Source: Azospirillum sp. TSH100
Lineage (GTDB): Bacteria > Pseudomonadota > Alphaproteobacteria > Azospirillales > Azospirillaceae
Direction: 5' to 3'
Assembly (NCBI RefSeq): GCF_004923295.1
Contig: NZ_CP039639.1
Coordinates: 420,501 to 484,500, forward strand
DNA length: 64,000 nt
Below the pieces are notes generated by a model. The model ran no database searches, was not told where the DNA came from, and saw nothing but the letters and a program-made list of their open reading frames with translations. Below, piece after piece: positions 4,532 through 39,428 of the stretch. Position numbers and translations under genes: made by a program. The first letter of the stretch is position 1. Every line of letters begins with the position of its first letter.

Positions 4532-4548
4532 ACAGGGCGAACAGCCCC

Positions 4549-6204
4549 TTACATCCCGCCCGGATAGTTCGGACCCCCGCCGCCTTCCGGCACGACCCAA
4601 TTGATGTTCTGGGTGGGGTCCTTGATGTCGCAGGTCTTGCAGTGGACGCAGTTCTGCGCGTTGATCTGCAGGCGCGGATCGCTGCCATCGTCGTTGCGGA
4701 CGATCTCGTACACGCCGGCCGGGCAATAGCGCTGCTCCGGCGCGTCGTAGAGCGCCAGATTGACGCTGATCGGGACCGACTTGTCCTTCAGCGTCAGGTG
4801 CGGCGGCTGGTCTTCCTCATGGTTGGTATTGGAGAGATAGACCGAGGACAGGCGGTCGAAGCTGACCTTGCCGTCCGGCTTGGGGTAGGCGATCTTCGGC
4901 GCTTCGCTGGCCTTCACCAGGGTGGTATGGTCGGCGTGGTGCTTCAGCGTCCAGGGCGACTTGCCCTTCAGCGCCGTCTCGTAGGCGGCGTTCGCCAGAC
5001 CGGCCCACAAGCCCTTCTGGAATCCGGGGCGGATATTGCGGACGGCGTGGAGTTCCGGCCAGATCCAGGACTGCTTCAGGCGCTCCGGATAGGCGATGAC
5101 CTCGGGACCGTTGTCGCTGCCGCCGGTCAGGTGGTCGAACACCGCCTCGGCCGCGACCATGCCAGACTTCATGGCGGTGTGGTTGCCCTTGATCTTCGGA
5201 ACGTTCAGGAAGCCGGCACCGTCGCCGATGAGCAGGCCGCCGGGGAAGGTCAGCTTCGGAATCGACTGGAACCCGCCTTCGGACAGGGCGCGGGCGCCGT
5301 AGGACAGACGGCGGCCGCCTTCGAAGGTCGGGCGGATCGCCGGGTGGGTCTTGTAGCGCTGGAACTCCTCGAACGGGCTCATGTGCGGGTTCCAGTAGTC
5401 GAGGCCGACGACGAAGCCGACCGACACCAGATTGCCTTCCATGTGATACAGCCACGACCCGCCATAGGTCTTGGGGTCCATCGGCCAGCCGATGGTGTGA
5501 ACGATCAGCCCCGGCTTCGACTGCGACGGGTCGACCTCCCACAGCTCCTTGATACCGATGCCATAGGTCTGCGGCTGGCAGTCGCGGCGCAGGTCGAACC
5601 GCTCGAATAAGATCTTGGTCAACGAACCGCGGCAGCCCTCGGCGAAGATGGTCTGCTTGGCGTGCAGTTCCATACCGGGCGTGTAGTTGCCGGTCTTCTC
5701 ACCGTCCTTGCCGATGCCCATGTCGCCGGTGGCGACACCCTTCACCGCGCCATTGTCGTCATACAGCACCTCGGCGGCAGCGAAGCCGGGGTAGATCTCC
5801 ACCCCCAGCTCCTCGGCCTGGGTCGCCAGCCAGCGGGCCAGATTGCCCAGGCTGATGATGTAGTTGCCGTGGTTGTTCATCTGCGGCGGGGCGAAGGGCG
5901 ATTTGTAGGCCTTGGTTTCCGTCAGGAAGAGGAAATGGTCCTCGCGCGCCTTGGTGGTGAGGGGCGCGCCCTTTTCCTTCCAGTCCGGGATCAGCTCGTC
6001 CAGCGCATGCGGTTCGAAGACGGCGCCGGACAGCAGGTGGGCGCCCACCTCCGACCCCTTCTCGATCACGCAGACGCTGAGCTCCTGGCCGGTCTCGACC
6101 GCGCGCTGCCGCAGACGGATCGCCGCACTCAGGCCCGACGGGCCGGCGCCGACGATCAGAACATCATACTCCATGACCTCGCGCGGTTCGCGTTCCATCA
6201 CCAC
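4549..6204 (-). CDS. Electron transfer flavoprotein-ubiquinone oxidoreductase (ETF-QO)
   Basis: This 551-residue membrane-associated iron-sulphur flavoprotein takes electrons from reduced ETF and reduces ubiquinone. The N-terminal FAD motif is [14 protein letters not shown]. Characteristic ETF-QO segments follow (G-A-H-L-L-S-G-A-V and [22 protein letters not shown]). The C-terminus binds the 4Fe-4S cluster through a Y-C-P-A-G-V-Y-E segment and [12 protein letters not shown]. Length is as expected for the family. The start is ambiguous by a few codons (M1, M3 or M11). The ETF subunits it serves are encoded 55 kb away at 60.0-61.7 kb, together with a hydroxyacyl-CoA dehydrogenase. Confidence 0.96.
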
Positions 6205-29992: not shown

Positions 29993-31297
29993 ATGCGTTC
30001 CGACATCGATGCCGCAACCACACAGCTTTTCCGCCGGATCGAGGCGCGGCGCGACGATCTGGTCGCGCTGACGCAGGATCTGATCCGCATCCCCACCGTC
30101 AACCCGCCCGGCGACGTCTACACCGACTGCGCCGAGCTGATCGGCCGGCGGCTGGCGGCGCGCGGCTTCGCCGTGGAGTATGTGCGGGCGGAGGGGGCGG
30201 CCGGCGACAGCGACCGCTATCCGCGCACCAACGTCGTCGCCCGCATCGAGGCGCCCCGGCCGGGCGCTTGCGTCCATTTCAACGGCCATATCGACGTGGT
30301 GCCCGCCGGCCAGGGCTGGACCGTCGATCCCTTCGGCGGGGAGGTGAAGGACGGCCGGGTCTATGGCCGCGGCGCCTGTGACATGAAGGGCGGCATCGCC
30401 GCCTCGATCATCGCCGTGGAATCGCTGCTGGAGGAAGGGCTGCTGACGGCCGGCGCCCTGGAGATCTCCGGCACGGTGGACGAGGAGTCCGGCGGCTATG
30501 GCGGGGTCGGGCATCTGGCAAAGCTCGGCTATTTCTCCCGGCCCAGGGTCGATCACGTCATCATCCCGGAGCCGCTGAACGTCGACCGCGTCTGCATCGG
30601 CCACCGCGGCGTCTGGTGGGCGGAGATCGAGACCAGGGGCCGCGTCGCCCACGGCTCGATGCCCTTCCTCGGCAATTGCGCGGTGCGCCATATGGGCGCC
30701 GTGCTGCACCGGATCGAGACCGAGCTGATCCCCCGCCTCGCCGCCAAGCGCACCGACATGCCGGTGGTGCCGGAGGGCGCGCGGCAATCCACCATCAACA
30801 TCAACGCCATCCATGGCGGCCAGCGCGAGGACCATGACGGGCTGCCCAGCCCGATGGTGCCCGACCGCTGCCGCATGGTGATCGACCGCCGCTATCTGAT
30901 CGAGGAGGACCCCGAGGCGGTCCGCGGCGAGATCGTCGCCATCCTGGAGGATCTGCGCCGCAGCCGCCCCGGCTTCGATTACGAGCTGCGCGAGGTGCTG
31001 GCCTTTCTGCCGACGATGACCGACGCCGACGCCCCGGTGGTGCGGGCGGTGGCCGCCGCCATCGAGACGGTGCTGGGCCGCCCGGCGCAGCATGTGGTGT
31101 CCCCCGGCACCTATGACCAGAAGCATGTGGTGCGCGTCGGCCAGTTGAAGGACTGCATCGCCTACGGCCCCGGCATCCTCGACCTCGCCCACCAGCCCGA
31201 CGAATGGGTCGGCATCGACGACATGGTCCAGTCGGCGCAGGTGATGGCGCTGGCGACGATGGGGCTGCTGGGGGGTGATGACGGGGTGCGGTTCTGA
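29993..31297 (+). CDS. M20-family metallohydrolase (ArgE/DapE-like deacylase)
   Basis: The 434-residue protein carries the M20 di-zinc ligands: H in F-N-G-H-I-D-V-V-P, D in G-R-G-A-C-D-M-K-G-G, the E-E pair in T-V-D-E-E-S-G-G, and the C-terminal H in D-L-A-H-Q-P-D-E-W. The dimerisation domain lies between about 190 and 310. It is closest in style to the ArgE/DapE family that removes acyl groups from amino acids. Real argE or dapE function is not implied, since the genes around it are not arginine or lysine genes. The start at 29993 follows GGGAGAGG. Confidence 0.85.
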   Translation: MRSDIDAATTQLFRRIEARRDDLVALTQDLIRIPTVNPPGDVYTDCAELIGRRLAARGFAVEYVRAEGAAGDSDRYPRTNVVARIEAPRPGACVHFNGHIDVVPAGQGWTVDPFGGEVKDGRVYGRGACDMKGGIAASIIAVESLLEEGLLTAGALEISGTVDEESGGYGGVGHLAKLGYFSRPRVDHVIIPEPLNVDRVCIGHRGVWWAEIETRGRVAHGSMPFLGNCAVRHMGAVLHRIETELIPRLAAKRTDMPVVPEGARQSTININAIHGGQREDHDGLPSPMVPDRCRMVIDRRYLIEEDPEAVRGEIVAILEDLRRSRPGFDYELREVLAFLPTMTDADAPVVRAVAAAIETVLGRPAQHVVSPGTYDQKHVVRVGQLKDCIAYGPGILDLAHQPDEWVGIDDMVQSAQVMALATMGLLGGDDGVRF

Positions 31298-31395
31298 CGG
31301 CGCCCGCCCCGCGGTCAGGGTGGCGGCATCGGGGCTCGACCGTGTGGCGGAGCGGCGGATGGAACGGCGTGGAACAGTTTTCGGCGCATGTTCCT

Positions 31396-32139
31396 CTACC
31401 GCCGGCCGGTGAAGGCACCGGCGGCGCGGCGGGGAACCGGGCCGGGGAGGAGGTTGGGGTATTCCTCATACTGGTTGAGGGTATAGGGGAAGACGCCCTT
31501 CGGTCCCTCCGCCTCCGGTTGGGCCAGGACGGCGGCGACCATCGCCGGGCTGGGCGGGTGGCGTTCGCGCAGGGCGCCGGGGATGGCGTCGTCATCCAGT
31601 TCGGGGACGGTGACGGCGGGCGGGTCTTCCGGTTTCGGGGCCGGCTTCGGAGCCGGTTTCGGGGTCGGCTTCGGGGCGGGTCTGGTGGTCGGCTGATCGT
31701 CGGGCTGTGGATCGGGTTGGGAGGTCCGCTTGGCGGTGGGCAGGTCGAGGGCGGCGAACAGGCCGAGCCGTTCGGCCAGCCAGCGCACGGTGGCGGGATC
31801 GCCGGCGGACACCAGCCGCTCGATCTGCTCGGCCACCAGGATGCGCAGCGAGGAGAGGCGCAGTTCGGCCTCGCGGTTCAACGCCTGTCGCTCCCACCAC
31901 ACCCTGTGACGGAAATCCTTGGAGCCGTAATAGGCCCGCCACAGCGTGGTACGGCTGCACCCCATGGCGCGCGAGACCTGAAGGAAGCTGTTGCCGCGCG
32001 CCAGCATGCCGGCGGCCATGATCCACTGCTCCTCATGGAACTGTGAACCGGGGACCAGCGAGCCTTCGGAGGGAGTCGGCGGCTCTTCGGCCCAGCGGGG
32101 GAACTGGTCGTTGGTGAAGCTGCGGGGATCGAGGGGCAT
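31396..32139 (-). CDS. HTH-containing protein with Pro/Lys-rich linker
   Basis: The 247-residue protein has a predicted homeodomain-like helix-turn-helix in residues about 35-75 (G-N-S-F-L-Q-V-S-R-A-M-G-C-S-R-T-T-L-W-R as neighbouring blocks). A helical region about 75-125 follows (E-L-R-L-S-S-L-R-I-L-V-A-E-Q-I). Next comes a linker made of tandem P-A-P-K-P/T-P-K-P units around 145-165 and a C-terminal tail. The N-terminal half recalls small terminase subunits and other phage-derived HTH proteins, but I cannot assign a function. The start at 32139 is preferred to 32154. It borders the AT-rich segment and may regulate it. Confidence 0.6.
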   Translation of the reverse strand: MPLDPRSFTNDQFPRWAEEPPTPSEGSLVPGSQFHEEQWIMAAGMLARGNSFLQVSRAMGCSRTTLWRAYYGSKDFRHRVWWERQALNREAELRLSSLRILVAEQIERLVSAGDPATVRWLAERLGLFAALDLPTAKRTSQPDPQPDDQPTTRPAPKPTPKPAPKPAPKPEDPPAVTVPELDDDAIPGALRERHPPSPAMVAAVLAQPEAEGPKGVFPYTLNQYEEYPNLLPGPVPRRAAGAFTGRR

Positions 32140-32180
32140 GGCGGAACTCCACAAGTGCGGGGGCTTGTGGGGGAGGTTAC

Positions 32181-32194
32181 AGGAAAATTTTCCT
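32181..32194. promoter_or_regulatory. Perfect 14-bp palindrome in divergent promoter region
   Basis: AGGAAAATTTTCCT is a perfect palindrome 42 bases upstream of the HTH gene and 89 bases upstream of the small gene that precedes the TIR gene. It lies at the point where composition shifts from GC-rich to AT-rich. It is a plausible operator for the divergent HTH protein; this is inferred from position only. Confidence 0.45.
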
Positions 32195-32282
32195 TATAGG
32201 CGAGGTTTTGCCAAATCGCGGATGGGGTCGTCTGTTGGGGGGCGGTCCGATTGTAAAGTCACTACGATGCCAAAGGAACACT

Positions 32283-32639
32283 TTGACAGATACTCAACGT
32301 CTAACTTACGCCATGAGCAGAAATTTAACTGTATGCGACAAGGTGGCGCTGGAATACCGACAAGAATTTCATGGTTCGCTCTTAGAACACACCTGCTTGA
32401 GGTTCTTAAATCAGATCTATTCTATGCATCGACACGCTATGGGAATGCAACCTCCTTTCCTGCTTCATAAACTCCATGGCCATTCCCCCACGATAGATAC
32501 AACCAAACGCATTTTAAGCTGGACTAATGCTCCACTCAAAGATCAAATGCTCAAGCTATTTCTAACTCAAAGAGGTTTAGGTGGCACGGCGCACAAACGA
32601 TCAGATCTTTTTGGATCGACTGACCTATATGGCGGGTGA
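32283..32639 (+). CDS. Small protein of unknown family, overlapping the TIR gene
   Basis: The 118-residue frame begins at TTG 32283, five bases after an AAAGGA Shine-Dalgarno (32272-32277). An internal ATG at 32313 has no such site. The protein reads as a soluble, partly helical domain (V-A-L-E-Y-R-Q-E-F-H, L-R-F-L-N-Q-I-Y, T-K-R-I-L-S-W, K-D-Q-M-L-K-L-F-L) with no family I recognise. Codon use is AT-rich like the TIR gene. Its last 59 bases overlap the TIR gene in another frame, and the TIR ribosome-binding site lies inside it. A coupled two-gene unit is the simplest reading. Confidence 0.55.
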   Translation: MTDTQRLTYAMSRNLTVCDKVALEYRQEFHGSLLEHTCLRFLNQIYSMHRHAMGMQPPFLLHKLHGHSPTIDTTKRILSWTNAPLKDQMLKLFLTQRGLGGTAHKRSDLFGSTDLYGG

Positions 32640-33279
32640 TCCGCCGGTCAAGGTTTCGAGTAAGGCGTTGAAAGACGCATTGGCTTGGGCTGACGATCGT
32701 TACGATAAAACTCGTCGTCAACTAATTGATGCAGGCGTTATCAAAGGGGTTGTAGGCGGCGTAGGAGGATCGCTTGAGCTTATGGGCGGCACTAAAGAAC
32801 TAGTGGATGAATCACCTGAGACATCCCTGACTAAACCGGTCAACGCATTTATCTCGTACAGTCACGCCGACTCCAAGATAAAGACCGAATTGCTCAATCA
32901 CATGGCACCACTCAAGCGCCTTGGTCTTATCAATGATTGGCATGATCAGGAAATAAAACCCGGCAACGAATGGGAGAGCACAATAATTTCTAAGCTTGCG
33001 AGGTCTGAGCTTGTTATTCTACTAATTTCATCTGATTTCATTGCCTCCGATTATTGCTATACCAATGAACTTAAAAGGGCACTCGAACGACATGCCGCTA
33101 AGAAGGCAACAGTCATCCCCGTAATTCTACGCCATTGTCTCTGGACTGAATTGCCATTCGGCAAGCTGCAGGCATTACCCACTGATGCCAAGCCAGTCAC
33201 GTCCTGGGAAAATCAGGACGAGGCTCTAATGAAGGTGGCGCAAGGAGTCCGCGAGGCGGCACAGGCTATGCGACGATGA
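32581..33279 (+). CDS. Winged-helix/TIR-domain protein, candidate defence effector
   Basis: The 232-residue protein has an N-terminal winged-helix-like domain (about 20-70: K-V-S-S-K-A-L-K-D-A-L-A-W, R-Y-D-K-T-R-R-Q-L-I-D-A-G-V-I, and a G-G-V-G-G-S wing). A TIR domain occupies about 86-215. The TIR landmarks are N-A-F-I-S-Y-S-H-A-D at the first strand, a BB-loop with G-N-E-W-E, and Y-T-N-E-L-K-R-A-L-E, where E163 sits at the position of the catalytic Glu of NAD-cleaving TIRs. GTG 32581 is the start because an in-frame TAG directly precedes it and AAAGAGG lies seven bases upstream. Base composition differs sharply from the flanks (24 G/C of 60 in 32281-32340), a sign of horizontal transfer. 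Confidence 0.8.
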   Translation: MARRTNDQIFLDRLTYMAGDPPVKVSSKALKDALAWADDRYDKTRRQLIDAGVIKGVVGGVGGSLELMGGTKELVDESPETSLTKPVNAFISYSHADSKIKTELLNHMAPLKRLGLINDWHDQEIKPGNEWESTIISKLARSELVILLISSDFIASDYCYTNELKRALERHAAKKATVIPVILRHCLWTELPFGKLQALPTDAKPVTSWENQDEALMKVAQGVREAAQAMRR

Positions 33280-33322
33280 TCTGCCTCGCCAGGGTTCATA
33301 TGGGCAACAGCCGGCACTTGAG

Positions 33323-33652
33323 GTGACGCGCACGGTCGCCAGGAAGTTGGGAGGGTACAGCCCGGCGCTCCGCCGGCCGCAAGTCGATACGCTCAACGGC
33401 TCCAAGCAGGCCAACATGACGGAGCTGCGGTTCAGATCGAATGGCGGTGTGTGGCGGGTTGCCTTTGCCTTCGACCCGAAGCGCAACGCCGTCATGCTGG
33501 TTGCCGGCGACAAGAGCGGTGTGTCGGAGAAGCGCTTCCATGCCTCGCTGATCGCCTCCGCCGATGTCCGCTATGACGTACGCGGAGGTCGGGGAGCAAC
33601 GGAATATGAAACCGACATAAGAAATGGTCGGCTGCACGGAAAACCCCGCTGA
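33323..33652 (+). pseudogene. Truncated RelE/HigB-type (Gp49-like) toxin gene
   Basis: The core matches the RelE/ParE-superfamily toxins of the phage-Gp49 type: V-A-R-K-L-G-G-Y-S-P-A-L-R-R-P, V-D-T-L-N-G-S-K, A-N-M-T-E-L-R-F, V-W-R-V-A-F-A-F-D-P, L-V-A-G-D-K-S-G-V-S-E-K-R-F. The usual first 25-30 residues are missing. The frame runs back instead into sequence at the end of the TIR gene. After R-Y-D the C-terminus is replaced by unrelated Gly/Arg-rich residues. Composition is GC-rich, like the chromosome. A matching XRE antitoxin lies 1.3 kb downstream, so this looks like a toxin gene broken at both ends by insertion. Residual activity is unlikely but not excluded. Confidence 0.65.
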
Positions 33653-33740
33653 AGCCGATTTCGTACAGACAACCATTCCGACAAGATTTACTGCTTATGA
33701 ACCCAGGGTGTTGAAACGGGACGTGAGGCGGCTCGCAACG

Positions 33741-33768
33741 CCTGTCGGAAAACACATGTTTTCCAATG
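33741..33768. repeat. 28-bp flanking repeat, copy 1 (with internal palindrome)
   Basis: This copy and the one at 34844-34871 agree at 26 of 28 positions. Both start CCTGTCGG and end GTTTTCCAATG. The core of this copy is an inverted repeat, GGAAAACA and TGTTTTCC around a CA spacer. Together the copies bracket the DUF2971-like gene in direct orientation, like boundaries of an inserted cassette or paired protein-binding sites. Confidence 0.75.
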
Positions 33769-33827
33769 TTTGCGCCAGCAAGTCTGGCACTGAATCGAAT
33801 TTACTGTTCTGTTGCTGCACGGCCCGC

Positions 33828-34655
33828 TTACTCGCCTTCGTCGATCTTCATGCGCACCCCGATTCTCTCAAGCGCTTCGCCAATATAAGCTCGGTTGGCG
33901 TCCGACGAGACGATGATGCGGACGATTATTCCGGCATCGATCGCTTTCTTGAACTCCAATTGAAGGGGCAAGCCGGCCGGGAACACAAGAGGAACTCCAG
34001 GGTTGCATTCAAACTTACCAACACCTATCGCAGAAAGGGATATCCTCAATTCCTTCTCGTCTTTGTACCTCTTATCCTTCAGAAACAAATAGGATTCTGG
34101 ATTAGGGAGGACAGTTTCGTTATTCCGGTGCGATTCCCTGTCCACGTACTCCACGATCCCATAGTTTATCGAGAAAATCTGCTTGCACCGGATTTCCCCA
34201 AGCATGAGCGTCCCGCTATTGATTGAGCTTTCAACCACTCCATTGAGGTATTTTCTCAACTTGCCGAAATTGAATTCGATGCATATCTTCCCGTTCGCGT
34301 CGCCGTTTCCGTAATTCTGCCAAATATATGGGGTATACTCGAGCGAGAAGCAACACGCGTAGGATCGGCTTCGGGATTCATCATAGTATCTCGCTGCCGA
34401 ATATTCAGGTGATTTCTCGAAACGCGGCCCTTCGTTAAACGGCCTATCAAGCGGCAATTGTTCTCCGTCGCTCTTGTCATCTCCGTACGTGTCCGCTCGT
34501 TGGAAGTGGAGATAATTCCCGCTTATCGAGCGAACGAAATTTTGAGCGCTCATGATTTTATAGAGCAACTGGCTTTCGGGAGGCTGCCGCAGGGCATGAG
34601 CGTGGGGCTCGACGGCTCCCATGGGGAAAGGGTACTCCGTCCCGACGATCTCCAT
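33828..34655 (-). CDS. DUF2971-like protein
   Basis: The 275-residue protein resembles DUF2971 proteins: L-Y-K-I-M-S near the N-terminus, Y-L-H-F-Q-R-A-D-T-Y-G-D-D, then C-F-S-L-E-Y, the I-W-Q-N-Y-G position where the family usually has M-W-x-x-Y, and C-I-E-F-N-F. DUF2971 proteins occur in some phage-defence loci, but their biochemistry is unclear. Codon use is AT-rich like the TIR gene, unlike the surrounding chromosome. The start at 34655 is preceded by AGGGGA with good spacing. It lies antisense between a broken toxin and its presumed antitoxin, inside two 28-bp repeats. Confidence 0.6.
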   Translation of the reverse strand: MEIVGTEYPFPMGAVEPHAHALRQPPESQLLYKIMSAQNFVRSISGNYLHFQRADTYGDDKSDGEQLPLDRPFNEGPRFEKSPEYSAARYYDESRSRSYACCFSLEYTPYIWQNYGNGDANGKICIEFNFGKLRKYLNGVVESSINSGTLMLGEIRCKQIFSINYGIVEYVDRESHRNNETVLPNPESYLFLKDKRYKDEKELRISLSAIGVGKFECNPGVPLVFPAGLPLQLEFKKAIDAGIIVRIIVSSDANRAYIGEALERIGVRMKIDEGE

Positions 34656-34947
34656 GGCCGTCCCCTGCGTTAATCGTGCCGTCGCATATCCTCTCGCACG
34701 GCCTCGATCCGGGCAAGAGCGCGCTTATGGCCTCCCGTTCAGCTTCGGGCATCCCCGCACGAAAGAGGAGCGTCTGCACGTCCCACCATGCCTCGCCGAG
34801 CTCGCGATGCTATTCTTGGGCCATCCTTTGATGGCTCCCGGCCCCTGTCGGGAAACACAGGTTTTCCAATGCCCAAGGCCCTTATGTCAGTTTTCTGCAC
34901 CGTTGCTCCCTACCCCTACATCTCTCCGATCTGAAAGGAGCCGAACC
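34656..34947. other. Gene-free spacer with the second repeat copy
   Basis: This 292-base gap holds the second 28-bp repeat and the ribosome-binding site of the antitoxin. On the minus strand a short frame (reads such as E-A-W-W-D-V-Q-T-L-L-F-R-A-G) has protein-like composition. It has a stop just upstream, no good start and no Shine-Dalgarno, so it may be a remnant of a former gene. I see no intact gene. Confidence 0.5.
34844..34871. repeat. 28-bp flanking repeat, copy 2
   Basis: This is the second copy of the element at 33741-33768, in the same orientation, with two differences (a G for A and a G for T) that weaken the internal palindrome. It lies 77 bases before the antitoxin ATG. The interval between the two copies is 1,075 bases. 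Confidence 0.75.
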
Positions 34948-35283
34948 ATGACGGCGACGATTCCGTTCGACCAAATCCTCTCCGGGATGACCGACAGCGA
35001 ACGCGCCGCAGTGGAGGCGCGGGCTTCCGAGATGCTGGCCGAGATCGACGGGCTTGCGGAGTTGCGCCGGCTTGCGGAACTGACCCAGGGGCAGGTGGCC
35101 GAAGCCCTGAATGTGAAGCAGCCGACCATCCACCAGATCGAGAAGCGGACCGACCTGTATCTGTCCACCCTGCGCCGCTTCGTCGAGGCGGCGGGAGGGG
35201 AGTTGGAACTGCGGATCTCCCTTCCGGGGAAGGGAGCGTTCAAGCTGACGGGGGTTGGGGAACTGACCTCCGGTTCCCGATGA
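34948..35283 (+). CDS. XRE-family antitoxin
   Basis: The 111-residue protein has an N-terminal helical region (S-G-M-T-D-S-E-R-A-A-V-E-A-R) and a Cro/C1-type HTH (about 45-75: L-T-Q-G-Q-V-A-E-A-L-N-V-K-Q-P-T-I-H-Q-I-E). A C-terminal part follows (Y-L-S-T-L-R-R-F-V-E-A-A-G-G-E-L-E-L). This is the usual build of antitoxins paired with Gp49/RelE-type toxins, normally encoded directly after the toxin. Here the nearest toxin-like sequence is the truncated one at 33323-33652. AAAGGAG (34934-34940) precedes the ATG. Its composition is chromosome-like and GC-rich. Confidence 0.8.
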   Translation: MTATIPFDQILSGMTDSERAAVEARASEMLAEIDGLAELRRLAELTQGQVAEALNVKQPTIHQIEKRTDLYLSTLRRFVEAAGGELELRISLPGKGAFKLTGVGELTSGSR

Positions 35284-35437
35284 CGGCCATGGCTCCGCCC
35301 ATCCCTCCACCGACAGCGGCTGCGGCTGCGGAGCCGTCATCCTCTCCGGCAGCGATATCGATTCCGGGACGGGCCAACGGCACAGCCTCAGCGGTAAGCC
35401 GGGGCAACGAAATCAGGTTAACGGTCTCGGCGATAGG

Positions 35438-35610
35438 CCCTCTCTTCCTTGGGGAGAGGGAGGGGACCCATGCCGGAGGCGTAGAGAGGGTGAGGGGGCC
35501 GGCGCGCTTTGCGCGCCGCCAAGGGGCATACTGCCCCTTGGCAATCCCCTGGCGCGGTCATTCTGCCCGCGCTGCCCCCTCACCCAACCCTCTCCCCAGG
35601 GGGGAGAGGG
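35438..35610. repeat. Mosaic palindromic intergenic repeat
   Basis: The 421-base gap 35284-35704 contains a nested palindrome. Small hairpins at both ends (CCCTCTC..GAGAGGG at 35438-35460 and CCCTCTCCCC..GGGGAGAGGG at 35588-35610) enclose complementary arms GAGAGGGTGAGGGGGC and GCCCCCTCACCC. In the middle are two tight hairpins, GGCGCGC/GCGCGCC and CCAAGGGGCA/TGCCCCTTGG. The end sequences share vocabulary with the repeat at 16.35 kb, suggesting a dispersed repeat family. I see no gene in the gap. Confidence 0.65.
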
Positions 35611-35667
35611 CTTATAAGCGCCTGTCTTAACCTGACGTCGTTGCCCTGCGACCGCCAAGCCTGCGCC

Positions 35668-36539: not shown

Positions 36540-39428
36540 CTACTCCGCCGACACCGGCTGAACAGGGGGCTGAACAGGGGGCTGCACGGGGAACTGCACA
36601 ACCGTCAGCTTCTCCAGCAGCCGCTCGACCTCCTCGGCGGGGATGGGGCGGCTGAACAGGAAGCCCTGGTAGCTTTCGCAGGAGAGATCGCGCAGCAGCT
36701 GCAACTGCTCCTGCGTCTCCACCCCCTCGGCGATCACCGACAGGCCCAGGCTGCGGCCCAGCCCGACGATGGCGCGCGGGACGGAGGCGTCGCTGGCGCC
36801 GGTCGACAGATCGTGGATGAAGGAGCGGTCGATCTTCAGCTTGTCGATCGGCAGCCGATGCAGGTAGCTGAGGCTGGAATAGCCGGTGCCGAAATCGTCC
36901 AGCGCGATCAGCACGCCGCGCTCCTTCAGGGCCGTCAGGGTCGCCGCCGCGGACTCGATATCGTCGATCAGGGTGCTTTCCGTCACCTCGATCTCCAGCT
37001 CCGGCCCGCTCAGGCCGTTGGCGTCGAGTGCGCGGGCGACCTTGGCCGGCAGCTGCCCGTCGCGGAACTGGGCGCCGGAGACGTTGACCGCCACCGGGAT
37101 CGACAGGTCGAAACGGGCGCGCCAGCGCCGGATCTGGGCGCAGGCCTCGAACAGCACCCAGTCGCCCATCGCCAGCACCAGCCCGGTCTCCTCCGCCACC
37201 GGCAGGAAACGGCCGGGCAGGATGAGACCCTCGTCGGGATGGCGCCAGCGGACCAGCGCCTCCAGCCCGACGATGCGGCCGGTCAGGGTGTCGACCTGCG
37301 GCTGATAGACCAGGAACAGCTCGCCCTCGCGGATCGCCTGGCGCAGGCTGCCCTCCAGATCCATGCGCTCGCGCGACTTGGCGCCCATCTCCTTGGTGAC
37401 GAAGCGGAAGCCGTTCCGCCCCTGCTCCTTGGCATGGTACATGGCGATGTCGGCGCAGCGGATCAGCCCTTCGGGATCCTCCGCGTCGTCGGGGTACAGG
37501 CTGATGCCGATGCTGGGCGTCACCACGAAATTCTGGCCGCCGACGGCGAAGGGGCTGGCCAGATGCGCCACCACCTTTTCCGCCACGCGGGCGGCGTCGA
37601 GCGGCTCCGCCACCCGGCGGACGACGATCAGGAACTCGTCGCCGCCCAGCCGGCCGACCGTGTCGCATTCCCGCAGGCCCGCCTGGAGCCGGCGCGCCAC
37701 CGACCGCAGCACCTCGTCGCCGAAGCTGTGGCCCAGGCTGTCGTTGATGACCTTGAAGCGGTCGAGGTCGATGAACAGCACCGCCACCCTGGTGCCGTCG
37801 CGCCGCCCCTCGCGCAGCGCCTGGGCGATGCGGTCGTACAGCAGGACGCGGTTGGGCAGGCCGGTCAGCGCGTCGAAATGGGCGAGATACTGGATGTGCT
37901 GCTCGGCCCGGCGCTTCTCGCCGATGTCCTCGGCGAAGGTCAGGATGAACTTCAGCACCCCCTCGGCGGTGACCGGCTGGAAATGCAGGCTGAAATGGCT
38001 GCGCCGGCCGCCCAGCAGCAGGGGCTGGTCGGATTCGAGCTTGCCGCTCTCGCCATGCAGCGCCGCCTCCAGCGCGAAGACGGAGGACTGGTCGCCGAAG
38101 CGCAGCCGCAGGTCGGCGCCCAGCAGATCCTGCCGCGGCAGGCCGGCGGCGGCGGCGAAGGCCGGGTTGCAGTCCATCACCAGCCCGTCGGTGCCGACCA
38201 GCGCGATGCCCAGCGGCGCCTGGGTGAACAGCTGCCGCCGTTCCGCCTCCTGCAGGCGGAGCGAGGCGGTCATCTCGCCAGCCAGCTCCACCGCGCGGGA
38301 ATGGGTCGCCAGCACCATGCGCAGGACCAGCGACAGCGCGATGCTGAGCGCGAGGCCGCCGGCCAGCAGGGCGCCGGGCACCCAGTCCTGCGCGGTGACC
38401 AGCCCGTCGGGCAGGCTGTCGTAGCGGACGGTCCAGATGCGCCCGCCGACCGGCAGTTCACGGATCAGGCTGAGGGCGGGCGCGGCGTCCAGCGGGCGGG
38501 GACTGCGGTACAGCGGAAATCCGGCCTCCGCCGGCGGCACATCGTAGAGCTCGATGCCGATGTCGGCCCGGGCATCGGGGCGGGCATCGGGGCGGGCGTC
38601 GATTTGGGTGGCGGTCCGGGTGGCGGCCCGCTGGCCGTCGATCAGCCCGTCCACCAGCGGGCCGATCCTGACCGGGGTCAGCACCACGCCGGTGAAGGAC
38701 GCCCGCCGCGCCTCCAGCGACGGCGGCAGGGGATCGCCGCGGTAGGTCGCCTGAAAGAGGATGAAGGCGGGCCTGGCCCCCGCCGCCTCGTCGATCTTCA
38801 GGGTGATGGCGCGGGTGGCGGCCGGCTCGCCGCTGTCGCGCGCGCGCTCGACGGTCGACCGCCGGGCCGCCTCCGACATCAGGTCGAAACCGATGGCCCG
38901 CACATTCGCCTCGTTGACCGGGGCGTTGAAGATGTTGACCACACGCTCCGCCCCGGCCGTCTCCGGCCAGATGCGAAAGGTCGACAGGCCGGCCGCCCGC
39001 ATCGACGACACCAGATCGCCGGCCCGGTCGGCCGCGACGGCGCGGGCATAGGCGATGGAGATGATGCCGGGATAGCGCTGCGGCATGTCCAGCGCCTCGA
39101 CGAAGCGGTTCCACGCCGTCCAGTGCAGGTCGGGAAAGGTCATCACCAGCGAGGCGGCGCTGCGCGCCACCTGCTCGTACACGCGGATGCGGTCGGCCAG
39201 CTGGCCGTGGATTTCCTCGACCCGCGTGGAAAACCGGTGCGCCTCCTCGCGATTCAGCAGGCGCTCCGACTGGAGCATGGCCAGCGCTGACAGGCCGGCA
39301 CCGACGATCAGGGCCAGGAGGGGAACGGACACCGGCGGATTGAGAAGGCGGAAGAGGCGGCGAATTGCTGAGTCCGGGCCCGCGGCCGGCGGTCTGTCCG
39401 CTTTGGAATCGGCGGCCGGCTCCGGCAT
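36540..39428 (-). CDS. CHASE-PAS-GGDEF-EAL membrane protein (c-di-GMP turnover)
   Basis: The 962-residue protein has a transmembrane helix (about 32-52), a periplasmic CHASE domain, a second helix near 330-350, a PAS domain, GGDEF and EAL. The GGDEF loop is intact (G-R-L-G-G-D-E-F) with an R-E-C-D inhibitory I-site five residues before it. The EAL domain has L-E-A-L-V-R-W-R-H-P, E-V-T-E-S and D-D-F-G-T-G-Y-S-S-L. Both cyclase and phosphodiesterase activities are therefore possible, set by an extracellular ligand. The C-terminus ends in P-V-Q-P repeats. It overlaps the preceding gene's stop by one base (TGATG), so the two are translated together. Confidence 0.93.
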   Translation of the reverse strand: MPEPAADSKADRPPAAGPDSAIRRLFRLLNPPVSVPLLALIVGAGLSALAMLQSERLLNREEAHRFSTRVEEIHGQLADRIRVYEQVARSAASLVMTFPDLHWTAWNRFVEALDMPQRYPGIISIAYARAVAADRAGDLVSSMRAAGLSTFRIWPETAGAERVVNIFNAPVNEANVRAIGFDLMSEAARRSTVERARDSGEPAATRAITLKIDEAAGARPAFILFQATYRGDPLPPSLEARRASFTGVVLTPVRIGPLVDGLIDGQRAATRTATQIDARPDARPDARADIGIELYDVPPAEAGFPLYRSPRPLDAAPALSLIRELPVGGRIWTVRYDSLPDGLVTAQDWVPGALLAGGLALSIALSLVLRMVLATHSRAVELAGEMTASLRLQEAERRQLFTQAPLGIALVGTDGLVMDCNPAFAAAAGLPRQDLLGADLRLRFGDQSSVFALEAALHGESGKLESDQPLLLGGRRSHFSLHFQPVTAEGVLKFILTFAEDIGEKRRAEQHIQYLAHFDALTGLPNRVLLYDRIAQALREGRRDGTRVAVLFIDLDRFKVINDSLGHSFGDEVLRSVARRLQAGLRECDTVGRLGGDEFLIVVRRVAEPLDAARVAEKVVAHLASPFAVGGQNFVVTPSIGISLYPDDAEDPEGLIRCADIAMYHAKEQGRNGFRFVTKEMGAKSRERMDLEGSLRQAIREGELFLVYQPQVDTLTGRIVGLEALVRWRHPDEGLILPGRFLPVAEETGLVLAMGDWVLFEACAQIRRWRARFDLSIPVAVNVSGAQFRDGQLPAKVARALDANGLSGPELEIEVTESTLIDDIESAAATLTALKERGVLIALDDFGTGYSSLSYLHRLPIDKLKIDRSFIHDLSTGASDASVPRAIVGLGRSLGLSVIAEGVETQEQLQLLRDLSCESYQGFLFSRPIPAEEVERLLEKLTVVQFPVQPPVQPPVQPVSAE

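What the first reader, a model, noticed from the sequence alone, without database searches (positions are those of the whole stretch)
33323..35283. Toxin-antitoxin pair apparently split by a DUF2971-like cassette
The toxin-like frame lacks its usual N-terminus and its C-terminus changes after R-Y-D, while an antitoxin of the type normally encoded right after such toxins sits 1.3 kb downstream. Both pieces are GC-rich. The DUF2971-like gene between them is AT-rich and on the other strand. The simplest account is insertion into a resident TA locus, with the TIR unit landing at the toxin's 5' end.
Basis: inference. Interest (0 to 1): 0.55.

Follow-up and report, generated by a model that had tools for sequence, protein, structure and literature searches.

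The report
Toxin gene split by mobile cassette
A small transposon-like cassette that carries a passenger gene, but no enzyme to move itself, appears to have jumped into the end of a bacterial toxin-antitoxin toxin gene, leaving a broken toxin and an intact antitoxin; the passenger may be an unrecognised enzyme of the ADP-ribosyltransferase kind.

Summary
The Gp49-type toxin at 33323-33652 is a fragment (residues 29-108 of 119). Its last ten codons (HLSDLKGAEP, stop overlapping the antitoxin's ATG) lie 1.34 kb downstream at 34919-34951. Six of 44 other genomes of the genus carry the full-length toxin directly next to this antitoxin (one copy has an internal TAG). The intruder is 33584-34916: imperfect terminal inverted repeats of about 38 bp resembling those of a Tn3-family transposon in a sister genome, a left end laid out like a Tn3 res site, and one AT-rich DUF2971 gene; no Tn3 transposase was found in the genome. 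It is best read as a non-autonomous Tn3-derived cassette (TIME/MIC type). Three sister species have cassettes with the same res end and other cargo. The toxin's 5' end is also gone (homology stops at 33338 against an AT-rich TIR-gene unit), by an unknown mechanism. The site is a variable hotspot, so the TA pair was probably cargo there. Two unusual points: a second, 85% identical copy of the res crossover-like site flanks the passenger, and the passenger's AlphaFold model ranks DarT and other ADP-ribosyltransferases first (Z 7.2, a lead only). The target duplication is imperfect (3 of 5).

The parts
32581..33279 (+). TIR-domain gene (232 aa) in an AT-rich unit (about 32203-33337) that abuts the toxin remnant; ThsB-like TIR
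   Evidence: Pfam TIR_2 1.9e-14; PADLOC PDLC00420 ThsB 2.3e-57 over residues 88-230; GC 0.485 for 32203-33330
33323..33652 (+). open frame of the truncated Gp49-type (HigB-like) toxin; toxin homology is 33338-33577, the tail after RYD is coded nearly wholly by the element
   Evidence: PF05973 3.9e-13; residues 29-108 of 119, 81% identity to L021; no toxin 5' homology above shuffles in 31201-33330
33579..33583 (.). candidate left copy of the target duplication, TACGC (3 of 5 identical to the right copy)
   Evidence: read; compared with 34917-34921
33584..33621 (+). left 38-bp terminal inverted repeat of the cassette
   Evidence: core 33592-33621 against 34881-34910, 30 nt, 80% complementary; only these 2 matches in the own genome, none expected in the window; 26/38 to the right repeat and 27/38 to the end of a Tn3 transposon beside its tnpA
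33632..33768 (+). Tn3-type res site: accessory-like block 33632-33692, crossover-like palindrome (site I) at 33743-33768
   Evidence: layout and spacing as in the recombinase-transposase intergenic region of a Niveispirillum Tn3 (reached through sister cassette L008) and in Tn3 loci L098 and L100 of sister genomes; the window's own left end gave no plasmid match
33828..34655 (-). passenger gene, DUF2971 family, 275 aa; predicted ADP-ribosyltransferase-like fold
   Evidence: PF11185 22.1 bits, cut-off 22; absent from the 44 other genomes of the genus searched; 37 relatives in GTDB genomes; AlphaFold model pLDDT 89.6; fold searches
34833..34871 (+). second copy of the res site I segment (39 nt, 85% identical to 33730-33768), direct orientation, so the passenger gene lies between two crossover-like sites
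   Evidence: score 48 against a maximum of 29 in 1000 shuffles; accessory block not repeated here above shuffles
34881..34916 (-). right terminal inverted repeat (36-38 bp)
   Evidence: local alignment to an IR consensus scores 54, maximum of 200 shuffles 28
34917..34921 (.). candidate right copy of the target duplication, TACAT
   Evidence: read; partial match only
34919..34951 (+). lost end of the toxin gene: HLSDLKGAEP and stop codon
   Evidence: tblastn of intact toxin residues 110-119, 80% identity, E 0.35 on its own but in the expected place and order; DNA alignment to relatives resumes at 34919
34948..35283 (+). intact HTH_37 (HigA-type) antitoxin, 111 aa
   Evidence: PF13744 6.8e-9, PF01381 1.3e-5; 83-92% identical to the antitoxins of the six adjacent pairs

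Best explanation
A non-autonomous, Tn3-derived mobile cassette (33584-34916, about 1.33 kb) inserted into the last codons of a Gp49/HTH_37 (HigBA-type) toxin gene. It has Tn3-type terminal inverted repeats and a res-like site and carries one DUF2971 gene. Shown here: the interruption, the adjacent counterparts in relatives, the inverted repeats, the res layout, the absence of a Tn3 transposase domain from the own genome. Inferred: that a Tn3-family TnpA acting in trans (from a transposon since lost, or on a visiting plasmid) pasted it in and a TnpR resolved the cointegrate at res; that the toxin, lacking 28 N-terminal and 11 C-terminal residues, is dead; that the antitoxin persists as an orphan regulator or passive antidote. 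A separate event removed the toxin's 5' end and put a TIR-gene unit against it. Best guess for the passenger: an NAD-dependent ADP-ribosyltransferase-like effector spread as solitary cargo.
For: Full-length toxin next to antitoxin in 6 of 44 other genomes of the genus, one of the six with an internal TAG (five of them first seen). DNA alignment to the relatives stops at 33578 and resumes at 34919, and the missing C-terminal codons lie there. Inverted repeats 26/38, maximum 22 in 20,000 random window pairs, and the 2 ends are the only 2 pattern matches in the own genome. The end repeat of a Tn3 transposon, just after its tnpA domain in sister genome G014, is 27/38 identical to the left repeat and 24/38 to the right one. 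The res part of sister cassette L008 matches the region between recombinase and Tn3 transposase genes of Niveispirillum plasmids, and the window has the same layout. A sister cassette in G026 is 917 bp long, with a 6-bp duplication and other cargo. Cargo and element are AT-rich.
Against: The window element's target duplication matches at only 3 of 5 bases and the two repeats differ by 1-2 bases in length at the tips, so the exact ends are not fixed. The window's own left end found no plasmid match at 1e-5 and no direct match to the Niveispirillum res. No autonomous partner with near-identical repeats was found, and the own genome has no PF01526 hit. The second ends of two sister cassettes (L061, L062) score 38 and 36 against shuffle maxima of 32, which is marginal. 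No strain of the same species without the insert was available.
Confidence: 0.87

Rival explanations
1. The whole 32203-35650 stretch is a mosaic built by illegitimate recombination in a hotspot; the DUF2971 segment came with flanking Tn3 remnants and was never transposed as a unit into this toxin gene.
For: The place is variable among sister species; the target duplication is imperfect; 34656-34832 is GC-richer (0.633) than the passenger gene, so the element is itself mosaic.
Against: The insert begins and ends, to within a few bases, at inverted repeats, and the toxin frame resumes on the far side at the next codons. A sister cassette has the same architecture with a clean 6-bp duplication.
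Confidence: 0.08
2. It is a composite element (TIME-COMP): two miniature Tn3 elements flank the passenger gene, and the right one has been partly lost.
For: A second site I copy sits 9 bases before the right repeat core.
Against: The right side has no accessory block above shuffles, and no inner repeat was found with the end pattern at up to 3 mismatches.
Confidence: 0.2
3. The split frame is a new functional arrangement: the truncated toxin with its new tail is still a working protein.
For: The frame is open for 109 codons from a GTG; substitutions against L021 fall mostly at third positions (8, 4, 22).
Against: 28 N-terminal and 11 C-terminal residues present in the intact relatives are missing or replaced. 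The codon pattern may mostly reflect time before the break. There is no evidence of translation.
Confidence: 0.05

Closest known systems
[quoted passage not shown] PMC13367494: abstract, introduction and resolution-site section read)
   Same: Tn3-type repeats of about 38 bp, no transposase, a res-like site inside (reported there for IS101 and TIME244), cargo in the larger forms.
   Different: One single element with cargo inside it rather than two miniature elements; an extra copy of site I beside the right repeat; a DUF2971 gene as cargo; target duplication not clean in the window copy.
Mobile (minimal) insertion cassettes, MICs (named in PMC4133298 and, for Tn3 derivatives of Xanthomonas, in PMC7157771; passages read)
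   Same: Terminal repeats enclosing a passenger gene and no transposition gene.
   Different: Here a whole res-like site is kept; the cargo is a different one. Whether described MICs keep res was not checked.
Gp49/HTH_37 toxin-antitoxin pairs carried by Tn3 transposons (PMC7157771, passages read)
   Same: Same toxin and antitoxin Pfam families.
   Different: There the pair is a passenger of the transposon; here the pair is the target of a Tn3-derived cassette. In the six genomes with an adjacent pair no PF01526 match lies on the contig of the pair.
DarT ADP-ribosyltransferases (structures 7omv, 7omy, 7yk3)
   Same: The predicted fold of the DUF2971 passenger resembles DarT best; a late E-x-E segment is conserved (E199 33/35, E201 35/35).
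   Different: No sequence-profile support (hhalign probability 0.9 per cent, E 0.061), no PF14487 match in the own genome, no Macro-domain match among the six window products scanned with Pfam.

Membership tests
Tn3-derived non-autonomous cassette (TIME/MIC type) | Terminal inverted repeats of about 38 bp related to a Tn3-family transposon | tested here: met
   26/38 between the two ends; 27/38 and 24/38 to the end of a tnpA-bearing transposon in L102; 20,000 random window pairs reach at most 22
Tn3-derived non-autonomous cassette (TIME/MIC type) | 5- or 6-bp duplication of the target | tested here: inconclusive
   3 of 5 in the window (read); clean 6-bp duplication in the sister cassette of G026 (read from the sequence printed)
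Tn3-derived non-autonomous cassette (TIME/MIC type) | No transposase gene inside | tested here: met
   no PF01526 match in six frames anywhere in the own genome, the element included; inside the element only the DUF2971 frame was scanned against all Pfam
Tn3-derived non-autonomous cassette (TIME/MIC type) | Mobilised in trans by a Tn3-family TnpA | not testable with these tools
   needs a transposition assay
TIME-COMP | Two miniature elements, one at each end | tested here: not met
   right end holds only site I and one repeat; the accessory block there scores 16 against a shuffle mean of 14 and maximum of 24
Tn3-type res site | Crossover site plus accessory block with the spacing of a known res | tested here: met
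   similarity to L098 and L100 by blastn (78% over 51, E 5.8e-4, and 81% over 37) and common layout with L066; no direct blastn match to L066; resolvase action not tested
Gp49/HTH_37 type II toxin-antitoxin pair | PF05973 toxin directly followed by HTH_37 antitoxin | tested here: not met
   split in the window by 1.33 kb; homologous pair adjacent in 6 of 44 sister genomes
Gp49/HTH_37 type II toxin-antitoxin pair | Toxin is toxic and neutralised by the antitoxin | not testable with these tools
   needs expression in a laboratory strain
DUF2971 (PF11185) | Score above the curated Pfam cut-off | tested here: met
   22.1 bits, cut-off 22, so only just; 15 of 35 aligned proteins match the family at E up to 0.01
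ADP-ribosyltransferase fold (DarT-like) | Fold match clearly above background | tested here: inconclusive
   Foldseek best E 2.3e-4 to DarT, TM 0.34/0.40; VIA Z 7.2, 141 residues, 3.5 A; most but not all of the 44 rows are ADP-ribosyltransferase-type proteins by title and recalled fold; Z under 8 is common by the tool's own note
ADP-ribosyltransferase fold (DarT-like) | Sequence-profile relation to DarT | tested here: not met
   hhalign of 35 against only 3 sequences: probability 0.9 per cent, E 0.061
Thoeris (ThsA + ThsB) | TIR protein ThsB with a ThsA partner | tested here: inconclusive
   TIR protein matches a ThsB model at 2.3e-57; no ThsA among the four window products scanned with PADLOC; the wider region was not scanned

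The most novel reading that the evidence does not exclude
The passenger gene sits between two directly repeated crossover-like sites (site I) of a Tn3-type res, inside a transposable shell. A resolvase supplied in trans could therefore excise or insert passenger genes at site I: the shell would be a docking cassette, a res-based analogue of gene-cassette exchange, carrying solitary effectors such as a DarT-like ADP-ribosyltransferase. Three sister species hold shells with the same res end and different cargo, though only one site I was found in each.
Probability: 0.1. Interest if true: 0.75.

Novelty: new member of a known kind. Interest (0 to 1): 0.45.

Why it matters
It is a clear example of a transposon-derived cassette without its own enzymes breaking a toxin-antitoxin pair, with six adjacent counterparts to compare. 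It suggests that such cassettes, which have no transposase and are easily missed by annotation, exist in this genus as a group with differing single-gene cargo. If the passenger's predicted fold is right, DUF2971, a family named in one paper of the held library (listing only), becomes a candidate NAD-dependent effector family that can be tested directly.

Tried and rejected
Other transposon types were considered before Tn3. Three weak pattern hits in a distant genome of the class (G275; L028 and L030 read) were not pursued; L028 holds a frame that I read as a DDE-transposase fragment (no call names it). The res similarity and the repeat of L102 point to Tn3.

TIR unit as a second element of the same kind: best inverted match between 32181-32500 and 33231-33360 scores 14, below the shuffle mean of 15.6; no DNA match for the unit in the 60 other genomes. 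Missing toxin 5' part: three relatives' stretches of 118-119 bases (about 34 bases upstream and 85 of the gene) score 19 in 31201-33330 against shuffle means of 19-20; the rest of the window gives 28-31, for which I ran no control. A 10-bp direct repeat between the two ends of the TIR unit has no control either.

Passenger in PADLOC: no match; in PHROGs one weak match of unknown function (phrog_1762, 4.7e-6). Neighbour genes of 36 DUF2971 loci (flanks up to 4 kb): besides the family itself only two clusters recur, one that I read as a tyrosine integrase in 3 loci and one in 2 loci that is annotated DUF4238 in the Bradyrhizobium record. No solved structure by sequence. The BFVD matches are mostly unnamed and were not used. 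Partners of the single ends in L063 and L064 were not found. Repeats of the Niveispirillum transposon are unlike those of the window (14/38), so it is a relative by res, not the autonomous partner.

Dropped rows: of the 37 DUF2971 loci, 34 went into the alignment; L152 (a stop inside), L153 (51 residues matched) and L137 (shorter match, no further reason) did not. Of seven DarT-family matches in six genomes, three gave the comparison alignment (L154, L155, L158); my quick frame search did not recover the others. Protein 5 was a wrong-frame stretch of the antitoxin; the right frame was scanned.
Full report
What was checked. The window lies at C6:420501-484500 of an 8-contig, 7.17-Mb genome. The tool does not name it; GC content, replicon number and relatives suggest Azospirillum, which is my inference. 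The finding says that a Gp49-type toxin and its antitoxin have been parted by a DUF2971-like gene.

The toxin is a fragment. The frame 33323-33652 matches PF05973 over model positions 20-89 of 90. The relatives read have toxins of about 117-119 residues, of the form MHTVLF...RYDDHLSDLKGTKP in L021 (one, L023, with an internal TAG). The window keeps residues 29-108 at 81% identity, then runs on for 24 other residues. The ten codons HLSDLKGAEP and the stop lie at 34919-34951, overlapping the antitoxin's start. DNA alignment to four of the five relatives (L021-L023 shown) stops at 33578 and resumes at 34919; for L025 the alignment is shorter. The antitoxin, 34948-35283, is complete (HTH_37).

Adjacent counterparts. 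A protein search of 45 genomes of the genus found the full-length toxin in 6 of the 44 others (G013, G014, G424, G009, G031, G027; the G031 copy has an internal TAG) and the antitoxin beside it in the same 6, with hits touching or within 14 bases. Five of these had been seen by DNA. Among the five loci fetched, homology outside the pair L021/L022 covers only the TA module, about 690-730 bp, so the module itself seems to move between contexts.

The intruder. Between the two toxin pieces lie imperfect inverted repeats (33592-33621 and 34881-34910, 30 nt, 80% complementary), about 38 bp when extended outwards. The shared pattern occurs twice in the own genome, at these two places. The two 38-mers agree at 26 positions; 20,000 random pairs reach at most 22. 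Of 385 genomes of the class searched with the pattern at up to 3 mismatches, this one and one other (G275, three sites at 3 mismatches) match. The end of a Tn3 transposon in sister genome G014, directly after its tnpA domain, agrees with the left repeat at 27 and with the right repeat at 24 of 38 positions.

The res site. Searching plasmids with the left end of a sister cassette (L008) hit two copies of one Niveispirillum transposon, and the match lies at a recombinase gene beside a Tn3 transposase gene; both copies have 5-bp target duplications, read from the flanks printed. The same search with the window's own left end found nothing at 1e-5, and blastn gave no direct match between it and that transposon, though it did to Tn3 loci L098 and L100 of sister genomes. 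Laid side by side, the block (G)TACGGAAAACC...TTTCCGTACAGCC...ATTCCGACA, followed about 110 bases later by a palindrome of the type TGTCGGAAAACACATGTTTTCCGACA (perfect in L065), is seen with the same spacing in the window, in three sister cassettes and in L066, L098 and L100, with base changes in each. That the palindrome is the crossover site (site I) rests on its place next to tnpA in L066 and on general knowledge of Tn3 res sites, as also described in PMC13367494 (section read).

A second site I. A 39-nt direct repeat of the palindrome region (33730-33768 and 34833-34871, 85%) places the passenger gene between two copies; the score 48 exceeds all of 1000 shuffles (maximum 29). The accessory block is not repeated on the right. 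Only one site I was found in each of the three sister cassettes. This feature is unexplained; recombination between related elements at site I is the simplest account.

Sister cassettes. The window's left end matches three of 44 other genomes at E of 1.4e-17 or less (G026, G002, G422), with weaker, mostly repeat-only or palindrome-only matches elsewhere. In G026 both ends are clear (L060:3277-4193, 917 bp), with CTCATC on both sides and a frame of about 170 codons that begins with a signal-peptide-like stretch by my reading. In G002 and G422 the second ends are marginal (scores 38 and 36, shuffle maximum 32), and I saw no target duplication; their cargo is a 136-aa frame without a Pfam match and a 243-aa Cys/His-rich frame with a match below the cut-off only.

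Target duplication. In the window the candidate copies are TACGC and TACAT, 3 of 5. Papers on such elements report 5-6 bp duplications in AT-rich targets (PMC4133298). The window copy may be old, as its two repeats differ from each other at 12 of 38 positions. This is the weakest link.

The transposase. No PF01526 domain was found in the own genome, while 21 of 45 genomes of the genus have one over the cut-off. Mobility at present would need a visiting transposon.

The 5' side. Toxin homology stops at 33338. Stretches of relatives around the toxin start are not found in 31201-33330 beyond shuffles. The abutting unit is AT-rich (0.485) and carries a TIR protein that matches a ThsB model. I found no ends for this unit. 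So the toxin gene was damaged twice; the order is unknown.

The hotspot. The left flank up to about 32200 and a right flank from 35651 (G024) or 36542-36602 (G422, G014, G021) are found in order, with 2.6-4.6 kb of other, less GC-rich DNA between them (GC 0.53-0.62), such as a PIN-domain toxin and a Fic protein in G024. In three more loci fetched (G007, G015, G424) only the left flank was seen within 8-9 kb. G014 and G424 have the adjacent TA pair on other contigs. The TA pair was therefore probably brought to this place and was not resident there in the ancestor.

The passenger. It just passes the PF11185 cut-off. It has no relative in the 44 other genomes of the genus searched and one on a plasmid record. 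A scan of GTDB genomes found 37 relatives, mostly 40-51% identical and mostly from proteobacteria by record title, one of them titled Azospirillum sp. RU38E. The only recurring neighbours are an integrase-like gene (3 of 36 loci) and one other gene (2 loci). The model from 35 sequences is good (pLDDT 89.6, pTM 0.88). Its best matches in the PDB are six DarT chains (E 2.3e-4 to 0.039) and, by VIA-align, DarT at Z 7.2, then tRNA 2'-phosphotransferases (KptA/Tpt1) and other proteins that I know to share the ADP-ribosyltransferase fold, with a few that do not among the 44 rows. Invariant or nearly invariant residues include K32, H49, R52, D54, R94, R96, E199 and E201. Against this: TM-scores of the DarT rows are low (0.29-0.47), Z stays under 8, and profile comparison with three DarT relatives gives no support, although it aligns the first conserved strand of both families. 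I hold the ADP-ribosyltransferase fold at about one in two.

Literature. Searches of the held library found one paper with DUF2971 (listing only), none with DUF2971 and defense, and none with Azospirillum, Tn3 family and non-autonomous together. Tn3-derived miniature elements with res and cargo are known (PMC4133298, PMC13367494), as are Gp49/HTH_37 pairs as Tn3 passengers (PMC7157771, passages).

Verdict. The thing is a new member of a known kind, with two features worth a test: the doubled crossover-like site and the predicted fold of the passenger.

Noticed in passing
window 32203-35650 (flanks to 36542): Variable hotspot: four sister genomes carry other, less GC-rich cargo between the same flanking genes (PIN toxin and Fic protein in G024, hexapeptide transferase in G422, unassigned genes).
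   Followed up: partly
window 32581-33279: TIR protein with a strong match to a PADLOC ThsB model and an unassigned N-terminal 87 residues; no ThsA among the four window products scanned with PADLOC.
   Followed up: partly
window 35440-35640: Repeat found in many genomes of the genus (matches to query 4538-4755); separately, stretches of about 269 bp recur on both sides of the TA pair between L021 and L022.
   Followed up: no
window 31396-32154 (minus strand): Helix-turn-helix-like gene with several related copies in the own genome and many in sister genomes; its role at the hotspot edge is unknown.
   Followed up: no
L133:2816-4819: In an alphaproteobacterial MAG one open frame begins like carbamoyl-phosphate synthase small chain (my reading) and ends in the DUF2971 relative; insertion, fusion or assembly error.
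   Followed up: no
L060:3145-3182: A second Tn3-type repeat lies about 130 bp outside the left end of the G026 cassette, a small nest of Tn3 ends.
   Followed up: no
L065:6417-6556: G012 holds part of the res block and the perfect palindrome next to a transposase-like frame that does not look like Tn3; what it belongs to is open.
   Followed up: no
L100:8242-8753: Two facing Tn3-type repeats about 510 bp apart in G426, perhaps a separate miniature element.
   Followed up: no
G027:C55:7570-8129: A second, more distant toxin-antitoxin pair (42-44% identical) with one TAG in each hit.
   Followed up: no
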